Assembly: GCA_029785615.1 (NCBI GenBank)
Contig: JAFLZH010000002.1
Coordinates: forward strand, 91,214 to 155,213
From: Nitrososphaerota archaeon
Lineage (GTDB): Archaea > Thermoproteota > Nitrososphaeria > Nitrososphaerales > Gagatemarchaeaceae
Length of the DNA: 64,000 bases
Direction: 5' to 3'
Shown: positions 50,111-55,396 of the stretch, piece after piece
How the letters are laid out: the number at the start of each line of letters is the position of its first letter
Numbering within the stretch: position 1 is the first letter of the stretch
Program-made: the position numbers and the translations under genes
Notes under the pieces: model-generated
Told to the model about the DNA's origin: nothing
What the model saw: only the letters and a program-made list of their open reading frames with translations
The model's database searches: none

Positions 50111-50727
50111 CTCCGGGTCGCTTGTTCCACCCTTTCGGCGGTCCCGCCCGGCGAGGTCTCCGCGAAAATCTCTGCCTGGAAGACCTGCACCCTGGTCCCT
50201 TCTCTGAGCCAAGCATCCATTGGCAGCCCGGCTTTCGCGCAAGCCTCGGAGAGGAATGCTTCCCGGTCCCATCCCTGCTCGGTGGCGACCTGGGGCAAGA
50301 GGAGCCCACTGGCGTAGCGGTTGGAGACGATCAGGCCGTCCACGCCCAGCTTGATCTTCGAAGGGAGGTCCTTGCGGGCGGGGGCTGAGATGTCTCTGGG
50401 AGCGGTCAGCACGCTCACCTCTATCACTATGTGGTCGAGCTCCTCGGCGGCTATGGGGGACGGGAAACGTGGGTCTTCCGAGGCAAAGACAGCCACGTCC
50501 CTTATGGCCCGGCCCAGGGGCTTGACGGCCTCAGGGTAGCCTATGCAGCCTCTGAGGGCCTTCGTCCCCTCCAGTTCGGTGTTGACGGTGACGAAGACGC
50601 CATGTTTCTCGGAGAAGACTCCCGAGTCCGGGGGCCGTGAAGGAGGGGGCACCCTCCTGACGTGTGCCTCAAGGGTCTCCCTCGCCAGCGCTACCGCCGT
50701 CTTCCCCTCGGCGATTGTTAGTGGCAA
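50107..50727 (-). CDS. AMMECR1-domain protein
   Basis: Predicted 206-residue AMMECR1-family protein of unknown biochemical role. The family block LRGCIGYPEAVKPLGRAIRD is present, with FASEDPRFPSPIAAEELDHI and the ISVLT-like IVIEVSVLTAP. Start TTG 50727 gives a complete N-terminal helix but overlaps the upstream Mut7-C gene by about 59 nt, an unusually long overlap. The downstream glycosyltransferase is translationally coupled. Confidence 0.9.
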   Translation of the reverse strand: MPLTIAEGKTAVALARETLEAHVRRVPPPSRPPDSGVFSEKHGVFVTVNTELEGTKALRGCIGYPEAVKPLGRAIRDVAVFASEDPRFPSPIAAEELDHIVIEVSVLTAPRDISAPARKDLPSKIKLGVDGLIVSNRYASGLLLPQVATEQGWDREAFLSEACAKAGLPMDAWLREGTRVQVFQAEIFAETSPGGTAERVEQATRR

Positions 50728-51217
50728 GCTGCTTCTGACCGAGGCGGCCCGCGAGCGACCTTAACTTTTTCCAGTGGCTCCCCTTCCAGTAGACATGGCC
50801 ACATCTGACACACCTGAAGAACGCTCTGTGGCTTCGCTGCACGCTGGCAGGGACCTCCGCCGACACCCCTGCCTTCCCCACCCTTTCGAGGGCGCTCCCG
50901 CACAGCGAACAGAGCGGATCGCCCGTGACCAATGCCAGGCCCAACGGTCCCGCGGCGTCCGCTATCTCAGAAAGTCTCTTGCCGTCGCTCCCCCCTCTCA
51001 GCAGGATCGCGGGGACCCCCCTCGCCCTGGCGAAGCCCGCCAGTTCGCGGTCGGCGGTCAGAACGACCCTCCCTTCCGTGGCCGCGAATCTGACCAGCTG
51101 GGCGTCCTCCCCGCTGCCATAGTAGGAGGTGTCGAAGCCCAGCGCCCTGAGCTTTCTCGCCAGCGACCCGAGCATGGCGTCCGCGGCGAAGGTCGGTCTC
51201 GCCCTACCAGTCGCCAT
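50669..51217 (-). CDS. Mut7-C RNase-like protein with zinc ribbon
   Basis: Predicted 182-residue Mut7-C (PIN-like, DUF82) protein, a putative RNase. The N-terminal fold has FAADAMLGSLARKLRALGFD, VLTADRELAGFARARGVPAI and acidic residues of a PIN-type site. A C-terminal zinc ribbon follows (CSLCGSALE and CVRCGHVYWKGSHW). The ATG is at 51217. It heads the minus-strand group Mut7-C, AMMECR1, glycosyltransferase and lies 12 nt after the TyrRS C-terminal remnant. Confidence 0.85.
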   Translation of the reverse strand: MATGRARPTFAADAMLGSLARKLRALGFDTSYYGSGEDAQLVRFAATEGRVVLTADRELAGFARARGVPAILLRGGSDGKRLSEIADAAGPLGLALVTGDPLCSLCGSALERVGKAGVSAEVPASVQRSHRAFFRCVRCGHVYWKGSHWKKLRSLAGRLGQKQLATNNRRGEDGGSAGEGDP

Positions 51218-51229
51218 GGGGCGCAGGAC

Positions 51230-51664
51230 CTACCTTGTGGTCTCCGCGGTCTTCACGGACTCGTAGAGCCTGCGCGCCGCAGGGTCTTTCTCGAAGTGTT
51301 CCCTGATTGGCGCGATTATGGCGTCGAGGGCGCCGGCCACCCCCTTTTTGAGGTCAGCCGGGTGCAGCTTGCCAGCCAGGTACGCCTCTTCAAGCTCCGC
51401 ATAGGCGGTAAACTCTACCGTTCCGCCGTACTTCTCCGGCCTTTCTATCCTGAGGGTCTTTAGCTTCCTGAAGATGATGTACTTCGAGTAGTCCATCAGC
51501 GCATTGCCTGCCGCGACCTTGGGCGGGCAGTAGGCCGAGTTCACCTTGCGGGAAATCACTTCGACCCCGTCGTGGACGAAGATGGAACTCTCAGGCTTGC
51601 TCTTACTCATCTTGCTCGCTATCTCCGAGTCCAGGGCACGCATGTCAGGGCAAAACACTTTCAC
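51230..51664 (-). pseudogene. tyrS: host tyrS remnant, C-terminal part
   Basis: Encodes up to 144 residues of a tyrosyl-tRNA synthetase from just before KMSKS (SEIASKMSKSKPESSIFVHD) to the natural C-terminus (GKLHPADLKKG; PIREHFEKDPAARRLYESVK). The catalytic Rossmann core is missing and the next bases upstream belong to the insert. The matching N-terminal piece is at 54086-54289 on the same strand. GC and codon use match the host. A GTG at 51664 could in theory start a peptide, but no promoter at the usual spacing serves it. Confidence 0.88.
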
Positions 51665-51733
51665 ACACGTCTCGAGGCAGATGGCACGGGAACGCCTGAT
51701 GCTTTTATCGATTATGAATGACTACAATTCGAC

Positions 51734-52843
51734 GTGTTGGACGAGGTCATCCTACGCGGCACGGCAGAGCCCTGGGAGAACGATTACTCGGACATCAAGC
51801 GATGCTGGCTCTGCGACCTCCCCAGCGAAGCAGAGATTTGCTCATACTGCACAATAAAACCAAAGCCAAAGCGCCAACCCTCTGAGCTGAGGTGGCCGCC
51901 ATCAGAGGGTGACCTGGAAAAGCTCTACAATGATTCGGGGATGAGCCTTCATGATATCGCCAGATTCGTGGGCAGGGGATACGCTACTGTCCATTATTGG
52001 TTTCGCAAGTACGACTTGGTGAGAAGAAACCGTGAGGAAGCGTCGAGGTCGATCGTGAGAAAGTATCCGGTAAGAGGGTTTTCTGGCCGCATTTCAGAGA
52101 AGGCATACATGTTTGGGATTGCATTTGGCGATTTGCACGTCAAAAAATCGCACAAATCGATTGAGGTCTACACATCTACGAGCGTACCTTCGATGGTTGA
52201 TCTGTTGATAGACACGTTCGCCAAATACGCTCGGGCCAAGATTACACCCACTATCTATTATTTGAAGGGGAAGAAAATTGGCGGATGGCGTGTAAGGGCG
52301 TTCTTGGATCGGTCTTTCGCCTTCCTCCTAGAGAAGTACTCCGCTACCGTGCCTGATTGGGTCACATCATCAGATGATACATTTTGGTCATTTCTCGCTG
52401 GGCTTTTCGACTCGGAAGGCCATTCCGGAATATACAACAGCGAGAGACACCACGGAGGTTCTACAACACAACTGACTATAGTCAACACGAATCTGAAACT
52501 TATTCGATGGCTTCGTTCACGAATGGAGGCGCGTGGTTTCCATCCGATAATCTCATCAGAACGATCTAACACAAGTGTATGGTACAGGCTGGAATTCGGA
52601 CGGAGAGAAGAGCTTCAAACGCTACTCAGGATTCTACCGTCCCGTCATCCAAAGAAGAAGGTCGTCGCCCGACTGTTGCTCAAGATACCTACAAGGATGG
52701 ATGCGGAAACAAGTTCGAGAATTATCCAGGAATACAAGTTGCTAAAGCAGGCGATGAAGGAGGATGACAGAAGACAGGGGTTGTCTTCCATCTTTGTCCT
52801 TGAACAAACGTTTCACTCGAAGGACCAGAAGGACCAAGGCTAG
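51734..52843 (+). CDS. free-standing LAGLIDADG homing endonuclease-like protein
   Basis: Predicted 369-residue protein: an N-terminal zinc-ribbon-like motif (CWLC at 24-27 and CSYC at 36-39), a helix-turn-helix (SLHDIARFVGRGYATVHYWF, about 71-90), then two dodecapeptide motifs, AYMFGIAFGDLHV (124-136) and FLAGLFDSEGHSG (220-232). Both motifs keep an acidic residue, so DNA cleavage is plausible. GTG 51734 lies 28 nt after cttttatcg. Third-position A/T is much more common than in neighbours, indicating recent transfer. Its natural target is inferred to be the deleted core of the host tyrS. Confidence 0.88.
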   Translation: MLDEVILRGTAEPWENDYSDIKRCWLCDLPSEAEICSYCTIKPKPKRQPSELRWPPSEGDLEKLYNDSGMSLHDIARFVGRGYATVHYWFRKYDLVRRNREEASRSIVRKYPVRGFSGRISEKAYMFGIAFGDLHVKKSHKSIEVYTSTSVPSMVDLLIDTFAKYARAKITPTIYYLKGKKIGGWRVRAFLDRSFAFLLEKYSATVPDWVTSSDDTFWSFLAGLFDSEGHSGIYNSERHHGGSTTQLTIVNTNLKLIRWLRSRMEARGFHPIISSERSNTSVWYRLEFGRREELQTLLRILPSRHPKKKVVARLLLKIPTRMDAETSSRIIQEYKLLKQAMKEDDRRQGLSSIFVLEQTFHSKDQKDQG

Positions 52844-52921
52844 CCTCGGTGGAGACGGGGAGACGGGGTCGTGCGAATCCAATCCCGCAAATGCTCTTTA
52901 AGAGCGCTCGAGAGCCGTAGT

Positions 52922-54013
52922 ATGTTGGCTTCGAGATTGGAATCCCTCAAGGCGACTCCAACTGAGGAGTTGCTCCAAGCGGATGAGTTTGCGGAACTTG
53001 TGGAACGGGAAACCCGTCCGAAGATGTACGTCGGGTTTGAAATCAGCGGGCAAGTGCACCTTGGCACGGGGATATTGAGCATGGCGAAAGTGAGAGACTT
53101 TCAAAGGGCCGGGTTCGAATGCACAATTTTCCTAGCCGATTGGCACAGTTGGTTGAATGGAAAGTTGAATGGAGACTTGGAGACCATTAGAGAGGTCGCA
53201 GGTGGCTATTTCAAAGCGGCGCTCGGAATCGGACTGAAGAGTGCCGGGGGCGATTCGGAATCTGTTAAGTTCGTAATGGGGAGCCAAATCTATGACCAGG
53301 AATATTGGGCACGCTTAGTCAATGTCTGCAAGAACCTGACGCTCAAGAGGGTCCAAAGGATGATCACCATTATGGGTCGCAAGGAGGGTGAAGAAACCAA
53401 CTTCGCCCAGTTAGTCTATCCACCGATGCAAATAGCGGATATTTTCCAACTCGGTGTGCACGTCGCCCAAGGAGGCATGGATCAGCGCAAAGCCCATGTA
53501 GGCGCAAGGGAGGTGGCTGACAAACTGGGGTTGCAGAAGCCGTTGGCTTTGCATCATCATCTACTCCTGGGCCTTACAGCGAGCGGTAGATCAATGCTGC
53601 CTTCTGGCGGGGATTTAACCGAACTCAAGACTGAGTTGAAAATGAGCAAGAGCAAGCCCCGTTCGGCCATATTCATCCATGATTCCCCTGAGGAAATAGA
53701 ACGGAAGATTATGGCAGGGTACTGCCCTGAGAAGGAAACTGAGCTCAACCCGGTGATTGACATACTTGAGTACGTTGTGCTCCCTGTAAAGCACAGGATT
53801 AAGATTGAACGTTCTCAGAAATATGGGGGAGACTTTGAGGTAAGGGACGCGGCAGAACTCAAATCAGCCTATGCCCAAGGCAACTTACACCCGCTTGACC
53901 TGAAAATATCCACAATCAGGCTCTTGGTAGATTTGTTGCGACCAGCACGAGAATTCTTTGAGGGCCACAGAGAATTGCTCTCGGTATTCCCCCGGGTCCA
54001 GACCAAAGAGTAA
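52922..54013 (+). CDS. tyrS: tyrosyl-tRNA synthetase, horizontally acquired, full length
   Basis: Predicted 363-residue class I TyrRS, apparently the only complete one here. The HIGH-equivalent is SGQVHLGTG (residues 42-50). Tyr and ATP pocket segments are FLADWHSWLNGKLNGDLETI and QGGMDQRKAHVGARE (about 183-197), with KMSKSK at about 240. ATG 52922 lies about 23 nt after a ctctttaagag box. The upstream in-frame extension to 52871 is rejected. It is opposite in strand to, and clearly diverged from, the host remnant (compare GNLHPLDLK with GKLHPADLK). Lower GC than neighbours indicates acquisition with the endonuclease. Confidence 0.94.
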   Translation: MLASRLESLKATPTEELLQADEFAELVERETRPKMYVGFEISGQVHLGTGILSMAKVRDFQRAGFECTIFLADWHSWLNGKLNGDLETIREVAGGYFKAALGIGLKSAGGDSESVKFVMGSQIYDQEYWARLVNVCKNLTLKRVQRMITIMGRKEGEETNFAQLVYPPMQIADIFQLGVHVAQGGMDQRKAHVGAREVADKLGLQKPLALHHHLLLGLTASGRSMLPSGGDLTELKTELKMSKSKPRSAIFIHDSPEEIERKIMAGYCPEKETELNPVIDILEYVVLPVKHRIKIERSQKYGGDFEVRDAAELKSAYAQGNLHPLDLKISTIRLLVDLLRPAREFFEGHRELLSVFPRVQTKE

Positions 54014-54025
54014 TCCTGATTACTC
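54008..54025. repeat. perfect palindrome at the tyrS stop codon
   Basis: GAGTAATC-CT-GATTACTC, 8-bp perfect arms enclosing the TAA stop of the acquired tyrS. It could be a protein-binding site, a transcript-end structure or a relic of an element boundary. No further copy was noticed in the window. Confidence 0.45.
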
Positions 54026-54085
54026 GAAGAACGATTCGACTCTGAAGTGGACATCGCAGTTTTAGACGGCGATTCCTTCATCAAG

Positions 54086-54289
54086 CTAAAGACATGTTCG
54101 CCTTAGGCTACTGCAGATTTGAATTGGAAATGGGACTTCGCCGAATTGAAAGTGTGTAAGCCCGCTGGGCTCGAAACCGTCGTAGGCCGTCGGGTGCTCA
54201 TTCGTCTCGAGCAGAGCCCTCAGCTCGGCCTCCGTGATCACCTCCTCCCCCACCCCCTTGACAAGCTCCAGCCTCGATTCCAGGTCCAT
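54086..54289 (-). pseudogene. tyrS: host tyrS remnant, N-terminal part
   Basis: The first 50 residues are an intact TyrRS N-terminus, from MDLESRLELV to GFEPSGLTHFQFG, ending exactly at the HIGH-equivalent (HFQFG, residues 46-50; the same numbering as HLGTG in the acquired enzyme). Then 17 unrelated residues precede a stop. ATG 54289 still lies 26 nt from a minus-strand gttttaacc box, so a 67-residue dead-end peptide may be made. Host-like GC holds up to about base 54155. Confidence 0.87.
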
Positions 54290-54405
54290 CTGCACCCGGT
54301 CTCCGCGGCTCCGGTTAAAACAGTTGACAGCGAGGGGTGTAGGATGCGACCCAGCAGCTAGAAAGTCTTAACTACGTTCAGGAGCGGCTGGCTTTCCGAA
54401 TTCTA

Positions 54406-54879
54406 TTGCCCAACGCGAGGCACTGGGTGTACGGAGCCGCGATAGCTACCTATGTCCTCAGCGTCTGGGGTGCCTACGTCACCGTAGGCGACTTCGGTGC
54501 CGGGTGCGGGACGGGGTTGGGAGCCAGCTGGCCTCTCTGCAACGGCGCCCTCTTCCCGAGCTTCGCCCACTACGCCACCCTGATAGAGTATATCCACAGG
54601 ATGCTGAGCGTGGTCGCGGGGCTGGTGATTCTCTACGCCACCGTCAAGGTCTGGAGGGTGAAGCCGAGGCCGTCCCTCCCGTCCAAGCTCATGCTCCTAG
54701 CCATTGTGCTGATACCCATCCAGGTCGGAATCGGCGGAGGGGTCATAGCGTCAGGGCTGGCCCCGACCGTCGCGACGACGCACTTCGCCTTCGCCCTCGT
54801 GATCTTGGCGATCATAGTCTTCGCGGGGGCCCTGATGTTCGCGGAAGCGAGGCAAAGGGGCCTGCCAGCGAAGAGTTAG
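54406..54879 (+). CDS. ctaA: heme A synthase-like protein (half-size CtaA/Cox15)
   Basis: Predicted 157-residue membrane protein with four transmembrane helices, matching half-size archaeal CtaA that dimerises to oxidise heme O to heme A. Conserved histidines are in LIEYIHRMLSVVAGL and VATTHFAFAL. A Cys pair in the extracytoplasmic loop (GAGCGTGLGASWPLC) resembles the CtaA disulfide loop. It implies an aa3-type terminal oxidase. TTG 54406 is the likely start. CtaB is at 56.7 kb. Bases 54880-55060 hold nothing I can identify. Confidence 0.86.
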   Translation: MPNARHWVYGAAIATYVLSVWGAYVTVGDFGAGCGTGLGASWPLCNGALFPSFAHYATLIEYIHRMLSVVAGLVILYATVKVWRVKPRPSLPSKLMLLAIVLIPIQVGIGGGVIASGLAPTVATTHFAFALVILAIIVFAGALMFAEARQRGLPAKS

Positions 54880-55060
54880 CGCCGCCGTCGCCGCTCCTCG
54901 GGACGCCTGACCTGCTGGAGCAGGACCTCAGGACGTCGAGGCTACGGCCGCGAGGGACAGCCCTTTGACGGGCGAGGAGGCGGCAGCGTGTGTTGTGAGC
55001 GACCGCGGGAGACGCGTCAAATCCAGGCCCAGCGCCGCCATCAGAGAGCCGAGTTCTAGC

Positions 55061-55396
55061 CTATGCTTTCTTGATCAGGGTCTCGACCTTCGACTTCAGC
55101 ACCGTCGAAGGGACGGCCCCCACCACTATGTCTTCCACTTTGCCCTTCGAGAAGAACATGACGGTGGGGATGCTCATTATGCCGAACTGCGACGCGAGTT
55201 CCTGGTTGGCGTCCGTGTCCACCTTCACGAACTTTACTCTGCCGTCATACTCCTTGGAGAGCTGATGGATCACCGGCTCCATCATCTTGCAGGGGCCGCA
55301 CCAGTCGGCGTAAAAGTCCACGACCACAGGCTGGGAGGCTTTCACGACCGCGTCCTGGAACCCGCTCGACTTCACTGAGATAACTGAATCTGTCAT
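55061..55396 (-). CDS. trxA: thioredoxin
   Basis: Predicted 111-residue thioredoxin with the redox site VDFYADWCGPCKMMEPVI, the cis-Pro loop MSIPTVMFFSKG and the buried Asp. It is a general disulfide reductant. ATG 55396 lies about 30 nt from a minus-strand ttcataaatc box that overlaps the 3' end of thiI; a longer frame is rejected. It follows ThiI on the same strand. Confidence 0.94.
   Translation of the reverse strand: MTDSVISVKSSGFQDAVVKASQPVVVDFYADWCGPCKMMEPVIHQLSKEYDGRVKFVKVDTDANQELASQFGIMSIPTVMFFSKGKVEDIVVGAVPSTVLKSKVETLIKKA

What the first reader, a model, noticed from the sequence alone, without database searches (positions are those of the whole stretch)
51230..54289. Host TyrRS gene destroyed and replaced by an endonuclease-plus-TyrRS insert: a natural 'cleave-and-rescue' element
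On the minus strand the host tyrS survives only as residues 1-50 (ending at the HIGH-equivalent HFQFG) and a C-terminal piece starting just before KMSKS. About 170 core residues are missing. Between them, on the plus strand, lies lower-GC DNA with a LAGLIDADG endonuclease-like gene and a full-length divergent TyrRS. TyrRS is essential, so the insert can be fixed only because it supplies its own TyrRS. Logic: the nuclease cuts resident tyrS, repair copies in the element, and the host becomes dependent on it. Synthetic cleave-and-rescue drives use this logic. A homing-nuclease gene linked to a replacement gene segment is also known for Allomyces mitochondrial atp6. I know of no archaeal case with a whole aminoacyl-tRNA synthetase.
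Basis: partly seen in the sequence, partly recalled or inferred. Interest (0 to 1): 0.95.

Follow-up and report, generated by a model that had tools for sequence, protein, structure and literature searches.

The report
Nuclease-plus-synthetase insert replacing archaeal tyrS
In an uncultured archaeon, a foreign stretch of DNA carrying a predicted DNA-cutting (homing) enzyme gene and a complete tyrosyl-tRNA synthetase gene sits where the core of the cell's own synthetase gene used to be, so the cell likely now depends on the newcomer, and the pair would be able to spread much as engineered 'home-and-rescue' gene drives do.

Summary
Host tyrS survives only as residues 1-50 and 228-362. The middle 177 residues (about 530 bp) are replaced by a 2.5-kb, 50%-GC, inverted insert with an intact LAGLIDADG-type nuclease gene and an intact TyrRS 42% identical to the host type. 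The 17 same-genus loci fetched all have an uninterrupted tyrS in the same place. Three near-identical assemblies share the insert; in each, the searches found one intact TyrRS, the insert's, plus a TrpRS. On a tree the fragments group with the genus, the insert TyrRS with a remote clade. Fragment dN/dS is as low as between intact genes, so the event is recent. Two other nuclease homologues appear to share a contig with this TyrRS clade. Remoter kin sit 3'-to-3' beside full-length conserved genes in 26 of 32 places. Best reading: a homing element that likely cuts tyrS and brings a recoded whole replacement. Cleavage, spread and dependence are untested. Known precedents (Allomyces, Glomus mitochondria) replace gene ends in frame; this is a whole-gene chromosomal variant.

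The parts
54139..54289 (-). N-terminal remnant of host tyrS (residues 1-50, up to the HIGH-equivalent; last 25 bp unusually diverged)
   Evidence: NF006330 positions 1-47; 89-91% DNA identity with L034/L029 over this piece and the DNA upstream of it
51230..51637 (-). C-terminal remnant of host tyrS (residues 228-362, KMSKS included)
   Evidence: NF006330 positions 217-337; 84% DNA identity with L029/L034 over this piece and the start of the next gene, 86-87% in protein
51638..54138 (.). Foreign insert that replaces about 530 bp of tyrS; 50.1% GC against 63.0% in the window
   Evidence: breakpoints from alignment to intact L029/L034; GC
51734..52843 (+). Putative homing endonuclease: paired cysteines at the N end, HTH region, two LAGLIDADG-like motifs (acidic residues D133, D226 and E228 invariant in the alignment); GTG start assumed
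52922..54013 (+). Complete foreign TyrRS (363 aa), motifs HLGTG and KMSKS present
   Evidence: NF006330 410 bits; solved TyrRS 2cyc and 7fg6 matched over nearly the whole length; tree
51638..51733 (.). Left end of the insert, outside the called genes
   Evidence: not aligned to L029/L034; GC 48%
54014..54138 (.). Right end of the insert, outside the called genes
   Evidence: not aligned to L029/L034; GC 44%
50669..51217 (-). Flanking host gene (Mut7-C family), found beside tyrS in all 17 same-genus loci
54406..54879 (+). Flanking host gene (COX15/CtaA), same neighbour in the four nearest relatives (86-97% identical)

Best explanation
A foreign two-gene DNA segment (predicted LAGLIDADG homing endonuclease plus a complete, divergent TyrRS) has replaced the catalytic core of the host tyrS, most likely because the endonuclease cut that core and the break was repaired with the segment, which would rescue the cell by supplying its own TyrRS. 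Shown: the replacement, its extent, the empty site in relatives, the foreign origin of the TyrRS, no other TyrRS found in the three assemblies, and its recency. Inferred: cleavage of tyrS, repair by copying, rescue by the insert TyrRS, and spread through the species. As it stands the locus has the anatomy of a homing cassette: 151 bp and 408 bp of host tyrS (plus neighbouring genes) form arms around the nuclease and a recoded rescue gene that shares only 51% of its DNA with host tyrS. A cell with intact tyrS that received it would be cut in the part the cassette lacks and could survive only by copying it in.
For: Uninterrupted tyrS with the same Mut7-C neighbour in 17 of 17 same-genus loci. 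Breakpoints are clean, about 530 bp lost. One intact TyrRS plus one TrpRS found in each of three assemblies. Host fragments group with the genus (five rows, SH-aLRT 98), insert TyrRS in a remote clade (13 rows, 99). dN/dS of the C fragment is 0.12 and 0.15 to G024 and G022, against 0.15 between those two intact genes. The nuclease model matches PI-PfuI, I-DmoI and I-SceI at E 4e-9 to 1.5e-7. Nuclease P0003 and TyrRS P0011 (79%) share a longest-contig length of 90,919 and the name Nitrososphaerota archaeon; P0006 and P0012 share 2,701. Remoter nucleases lie 3'-to-3' beside full-length, stop-free ferredoxin, NuoD, RtcB or MCM genes in 26 of 32 distinct places, as free-standing homing nucleases would. 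A TyrRS landing inside tyrS by chance is about 1 in 1,300 (1.09 kb of 1.39 Mb). Rescue gene: 51-52% DNA identity to host tyrS, longest shared run 17-18 bases.
Against: No cleavage data, and the target site is unknown. Only one insertion event is seen: the two other carriers are 99.9% identical over 13-18 kb, so they are the same lineage. Six of the eight other close nuclease homologues show no matching contig length among the 120 TyrRS listed out of 6,251. TyrRS P0009 (94%) and P0010 (90%) show no matching nuclease. In the element the nuclease lies upstream of TyrRS on the same strand, not 3'-to-3' as in its remoter kin. Many of those kin may descend from a few old sites (RtcB also lies in seven of the ferredoxin loci). 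The insert is inverted and replaces about 530 bp, so the first event was not a simple gene conversion from a homologous allele. The genome is a 90.9%-complete draft.
Confidence: 0.6

Rival explanations
1. Ectopic one-off: the nuclease is an ordinary free-standing homing gene that lived beside tyrS of the donor lineage; on transfer it cut the host tyrS once, and the break was closed with the nuclease-TyrRS DNA by end joining. No drive followed; the state became fixed by drift or because reversal is impossible.
For: Inverted orientation and a loss of about 530 bp fit end joining; the two ends share no exact direct run over 6 bp and no inverted run over 9 bp; remoter nucleases sit beside unbroken genes; only one event seen.
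Against: Does not by itself explain presence in all three assemblies of the lineage, though with three samples that is weak.
Confidence: 0.25
2. Ordinary horizontal transfer: a foreign TyrRS arrived with a passenger nuclease and landed in tyrS by chance; the nuclease has no part in it.
For: Synthetase genes are known to be transferred (general knowledge); two haloarchaeal plasmids carry a TyrRS gene; P0009 and P0010 show no nuclease partner.
Against: Landing in tyrS itself is about 1 in 1,300 by chance; the nuclease-TyrRS linkage seems to recur; nuclease kin are tied to particular genes.
Confidence: 0.1
3. Old decay: host tyrS became redundant after a second TyrRS arrived, and then decayed and collected inserts.
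For: None found; only the general possibility.
Against: Both remnants are open and as constrained as intact genes; the only second TyrRS found lies inside the broken gene.
Confidence: 0.03
4. Assembly or binning artefact.
For: Draft MAGs; no reads seen.
Against: Three assemblies agree across both junctions, 99.98% over 18,001 bp and 99.94% over 12,991 bp.
Confidence: 0.02

Closest known systems
Gene-replacing mobile ORFs of fungal mitochondria (Allomyces macrogynus atp6; Glomus sp. atp6, atp9, cox2, nad3; PMC3630166, passages read)
   Same: An endonuclease gene inserted in an essential gene together with foreign coding sequence that takes over from the native part; the native remnant stays and still resembles relatives.
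   Different: There only the C-terminal end is replaced, fused with the host gene. Here a whole gene is supplied, inverted, with no fusion, in an archaeal chromosome, and 177 core residues are deleted.
Free-standing homing endonucleases / intronless homing in T4-like phages (PMC2988022, passages read)
   Same: A nuclease outside introns and inteins, placed near a target gene; [quoted passage not shown]
   Different: There, as far as the passages say, the target is exchanged for a homologous allele. Here the target gene is broken and its function is taken over by a 42%-identical enzyme.
Engineered home-and-rescue (HomeR, PMC7968924, passages read) and cleave-and-rescue (PMC7951863, passages read) drives
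   Same: Nuclease plus recoded copy of an essential gene (HomeR: at the target locus); loss-of-function alleles are lethal without the rescue.
   Different: Engineered Cas9 systems in insects. Here the nuclease is LAGLIDADG-like, its target is inferred, and spread has not been observed.

Membership tests
LAGLIDADG homing endonucleases | Two LAGLIDADG motifs with acidic catalytic residues | tested here: met
   Stretches FGIAFGD (D133) and LAGLFDSEG (D226, E228), acidic residues invariant in the 8 aligned sequences; reading them as catalytic is recalled knowledge
LAGLIDADG homing endonucleases | LAGLIDADG fold | tested here: met
   Model pLDDT 77; best PDB hits PI-PfuI, I-OnuI variants, bI3 maturase, I-Tsp061I, with I-DmoI and I-SceI below. 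TM-scores are modest (0.31-0.42 by query, up to 0.65 by target in the 50 rows shown)
LAGLIDADG homing endonucleases | Pfam curated cut-off | tested here: inconclusive
   Own sequence 18.3 bits against 22.5; 6 of the 7 other homologues carry PF14528
LAGLIDADG homing endonucleases | Site-specific double-strand cleavage | not testable with these tools
   -
Free-standing homing endonucleases (intronless homing) | Gene outside an intron or intein | tested here: met
   No Rfam family over 50500-55200; opposite strand to the host gene, no in-frame fusion
Free-standing homing endonucleases (intronless homing) | Present/absent at the same site in close relatives | tested here: met
   Empty, uninterrupted site in 17 of 17 same-genus loci
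Free-standing homing endonucleases (intronless homing) | Cleaves the allele that lacks it; flanks co-converted | not testable with these tools
   Only a diverged 25-bp stretch at the right junction hints at repair
Allomyces/Glomus gene-replacing mobile ORFs | Insert restores an in-frame hybrid of the host gene | tested here: not met
   Insert TyrRS is complete and inverted
Allomyces/Glomus gene-replacing mobile ORFs | Foreign coding sequence linked to an endonuclease gene | tested here: met
   Tree; linked genes
Home-and-rescue / cleave-and-rescue drive (as a mode of action) | Recoded functional rescue gene at the destroyed target | tested here: inconclusive
   Met in sequence: intact motifs, 51-52% DNA identity; enzyme activity untested
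Home-and-rescue / cleave-and-rescue drive (as a mode of action) | Nuclease targets the essential gene | not testable with these tools
   Inferred from location and from kin
Home-and-rescue / cleave-and-rescue drive (as a mode of action) | Biased spread | tested here: inconclusive
   Insert in 3 of 3 assemblies of the lineage; element-type TyrRS in none of the 43 other genomes of the family, 6 of which gave no TyrRS match at all

The most novel reading that the evidence does not exclude
A natural, self-propagating whole-gene home-and-rescue drive in a cellular chromosome: a LAGLIDADG nuclease that destroys an essential aminoacyl-tRNA synthetase gene and carries a recoded, phylogenetically remote synthetase as the antidote, so that the host becomes addicted to it. 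It would be one branch of a wider archaeal family of gene-addressed free-standing nucleases, and a route by which essential enzymes are replaced by foreign versions.
Probability: 0.4. Interest if true: 0.95.

Novelty: new variant of a known kind. Interest (0 to 1): 0.83.

Why it matters
Gene drives that break an essential gene and carry the cure were designed by engineers. A natural one in archaea would show that the logic evolves unaided. It would also give a concrete mechanism for an old puzzle: how essential aminoacyl-tRNA synthetase genes come to be displaced by foreign versions, with an aggressive nuclease rather than an advantage of the enzyme driving the swap. The system makes this directly testable, because near relatives with the intact target are known.

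Tried and rejected
Rejected: old decay, chimera, a second host-type tyrS (none found), intron or in-frame intein. Terminal repeats of a transposon: between the two ends the longest exact direct run is 6 bp and the longest inverted run 9 bp, reached in 10 of 500 shuffles; two searches looked within each end and within the whole region. A weak resemblance of the right end to the host C fragment (above 300 of 300 shuffles in both scorings, but 32 comparisons were made and intact relatives gave no such result) was left open. G162 and G085 first looked like independent carriers and were dropped as such. G107, whose tyrS looked split, is cut only by contig ends.

Led nowhere: viral contigs with the nuclease alignment (1 weak hit) and with the TyrRS alignment, P0003 and the insert TyrRS (none); nuclease in phages and plasmids (none); TyrRS in phages (none). 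Search for the donor TyrRS clade at E 1e-95: class 2 of 400, order 3 of 400, class again 1 of 304; family 3 of 46 by identity; phylum, with P0014, 44 of 398, of which only G000 (70%) exceeds 54% identity. All clade hits are this lineage, and the samples overlap. The contigs of P0003/P0011 and P0006/P0012 could not be opened. Papers: nine searches were answered; among the titles and abstract openings listed none was a natural nuclease-synthetase replacement; several lists were capped, and most subscription journals are not held.

Rows dropped: for the tree, 95 of 119 candidate proteins passed a motif and length filter; one joined host-fragment row was then added. For nuclease neighbours 38 loci were used, 32 distinct; further matches without a fetched neighbourhood were not examined, and the four neighbour families counted were chosen after seeing the neighbours. 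Six of the 32 places have none of the four.

After the one-time check I added (TrpRS identity, names of flanking genes, place of the low-GC windows, junction mismatches, stops in neighbour genes).
Full report
WHAT IS THERE. On the minus strand the host tyrS is broken. Residues 1-50 lie at 54139-54289 and residues 228-362 at 51230-51637. They match the TyrRS model NF006330 at positions 1-47 and 217-337. Alignment with two same-genus genomes that have the whole gene (L029 = G022, L034 = G024) gives sharp limits: in L029 530 bp are missing, and here 2,501 bp (51638-54138) stand in their place. In L034 the whole gene is 362 residues, of which 177 are gone here, including most of the catalytic domain. 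The insert has 50.1% GC in a 63.0% GC window, and the eight lowest of 123 2.5-kb windows all overlap it. On its plus strand it carries a 369-residue nuclease-like ORF (51734-52843) and, 78 bp further on, a 363-residue TyrRS (52922-54013; NF006330 410 bits, cut-off 220). No Rfam family matches around it.

THE EMPTY SITE. The neighbours here are a TIGR00296/AmmeMemoSam_A protein, Mut7-C, tyrS, COX15, thioredoxin and ThiI. In all 17 same-genus loci fetched, Mut7-C stands beside an uninterrupted tyrS reading frame. In the nearest four, COX15 (86-97% identical) stands on the other side. So the ancestral locus was intact, and the insertion belongs to this lineage.

NOT AN ARTEFACT, NO SECOND COPY FOUND. 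Two further assemblies, G162 (a 115,134-bp contig, the length of JAFMAI010000003.1, FK2_bin.173) and G085 (12,991 bp, the length of JAJZIG010000039.1, LSA3.bin14), match the window over 18,001 bp at 99.98% and over 12,991 bp at 99.94%, both junctions included. They argue against a chimera, but being the same lineage they are not independent insertions. PF00579 searches find in each of the three the insert TyrRS, one TrpRS (over the TIGR00233 cut-off in all three) and the host C fragment; G000 has one further match below the cut-off. The completeness values are 90.9, 65 and 90%.

THE INSERT TyrRS IS FOREIGN. In a tree of 96 rows the joined host fragments fall in a five-row clade of the genus (SH-aLRT 98). 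The insert TyrRS falls in a 13-row clade with proteins P0009-P0019 and P0021 (99), known from metagenome-type sources and NCBI records, one of them a MAG named Nitrososphaerota archaeon. Identity between insert and host type is 42% in protein and 51-52% in DNA over aligned codons, with a longest shared run of 17-18 bases. HLGTG and KMSKS are present, and the protein aligns over nearly its whole length with solved TyrRSs. At the thresholds used, no other sampled genome of the class, order, phylum or family has a TyrRS of this clade.

RECENCY. dN/dS of the C fragment against G022 and G024 is 0.15 and 0.12; between those two intact genes it is 0.15. For the N fragment the values are 0.18, 0.12 and 0.37, on few sites. 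Both remnants are open. The gene was therefore likely under selection for nearly all of its separate history. The low GC of the insert agrees.

THE NUCLEASE. Seven homologues align with it at 46-63% identity, with D133, D226 and E228 invariant in two LAGLIDADG-like stretches. The model (mean pLDDT 77) is most like PI-PfuI, I-OnuI variants, bI3 maturase and I-Tsp061I, with I-DmoI and I-SceI further down. Before the nuclease core lie an HTH region (weak Pfam) and paired cysteines. Two of the eight other close homologues (P0002-P0008, P0129) have a longest contig of the same length as a TyrRS of the insert's clade: P0003 and P0011 at 90,919, P0006 and P0012 at 2,701. That is indirect evidence that the pair recurs. 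For the other six no such match is among the 120 TyrRS listed (of 6,251). TyrRS P0009 (94%) and P0010 (90%) have no matching nuclease either.

A WIDER RULE. More distant nucleases (mostly 26-36% identical) occur in the same family and in other archaea. Of 32 distinct places examined, 26 have the nuclease close to the 3' end, on the opposite strand, of a conserved gene: 13 a 4Fe-4S ferredoxin, 10 a NuoD-like 49-kDa subunit, 2 RtcB, 1 methylmalonyl-CoA mutase. These genes align full length without stops; one NuoD (L083, the same place as L058) has a 34-residue gap. The other six places have none of the four. RtcB also lies in seven of the distinct ferredoxin loci, so several places may go back to a few old sites. 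This is how free-standing homing nucleases would sit by their targets, and it makes tyrS the natural target of the present subfamily. The element departs from the rule in two ways: its nuclease is upstream of its TyrRS on the same strand, and the host gene is broken.

MECHANISM. Shown: replacement, extent, foreign TyrRS, the only TyrRS found, recency. Inferred: the nuclease cut the tyrS core; the break was repaired with the nuclease-TyrRS DNA (first time by end joining or another ectopic path, as the inversion and the loss of about 530 bp suggest); cells lived because the newcomer supplied TyrRS; thereafter the locus, with 151-bp and 408-bp tyrS arms plus neighbouring genes, can convert intact alleles, and badly repaired alleles are lethal. 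The main rival is that the first step happened but no drive followed. Landing of a TyrRS in tyrS by chance (1.09 kb of 1.39 Mb) is unlikely.

AGAINST. One event only; no cleavage data; unknown target; incomplete genomes; weak and indirect linkage elsewhere; departure from the wider placement rule.

KNOWN KINDS. Allomyces atp6 and four Glomus genes (PMC3630166, passages read) have endonuclease ORFs that bring a foreign C-terminal end fused to the host gene. T4 free-standing nucleases (PMC2988022, passages read) co-convert flanks. HomeR and ClvR drives (PMC7968924, PMC7951863, passages read) are engineered. None of these is a whole-gene, inverted, chromosomal replacement of an aminoacyl-tRNA synthetase, and among the titles and abstract openings listed there was no such case.

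Noticed in passing
L162, L164, L165, L167, L168, L171-L177, L079, L082 and others: A family of HTH-LAGLIDADG nucleases in archaea lies 3'-to-3' beside full-length conserved genes (ferredoxin, NuoD, RtcB, methylmalonyl-CoA mutase) in 26 of 32 distinct places; gene-addressed free-standing nucleases that seem worth their own study.
   Followed up: partly
window 54139-54163: The last 25 bp of the host N fragment differ from L029 at 7 and from L034 at 8 positions, against 9 in the preceding 126 bp for each; it may mark repair at the cut or sequence from a donor.
   Followed up: partly
window 54018-54093 and 51456-51493: Two short inverted similarities (18 nt at 89%, 15 nt at 87%), in matching order, between the insert's right end and the host C fragment; possibly chance.
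   Followed up: partly
G000, G085, G162: Three genomes of a set described as one per species are 99.9% identical over 13-18 kb at this locus.
   Followed up: no
NC_019976.1 30889-31836; NZ_CP082247.1 571740-572663: Two haloarchaeal plasmids carry an annotated tyrosine--tRNA ligase, 33% identical to the insert's.
   Followed up: no
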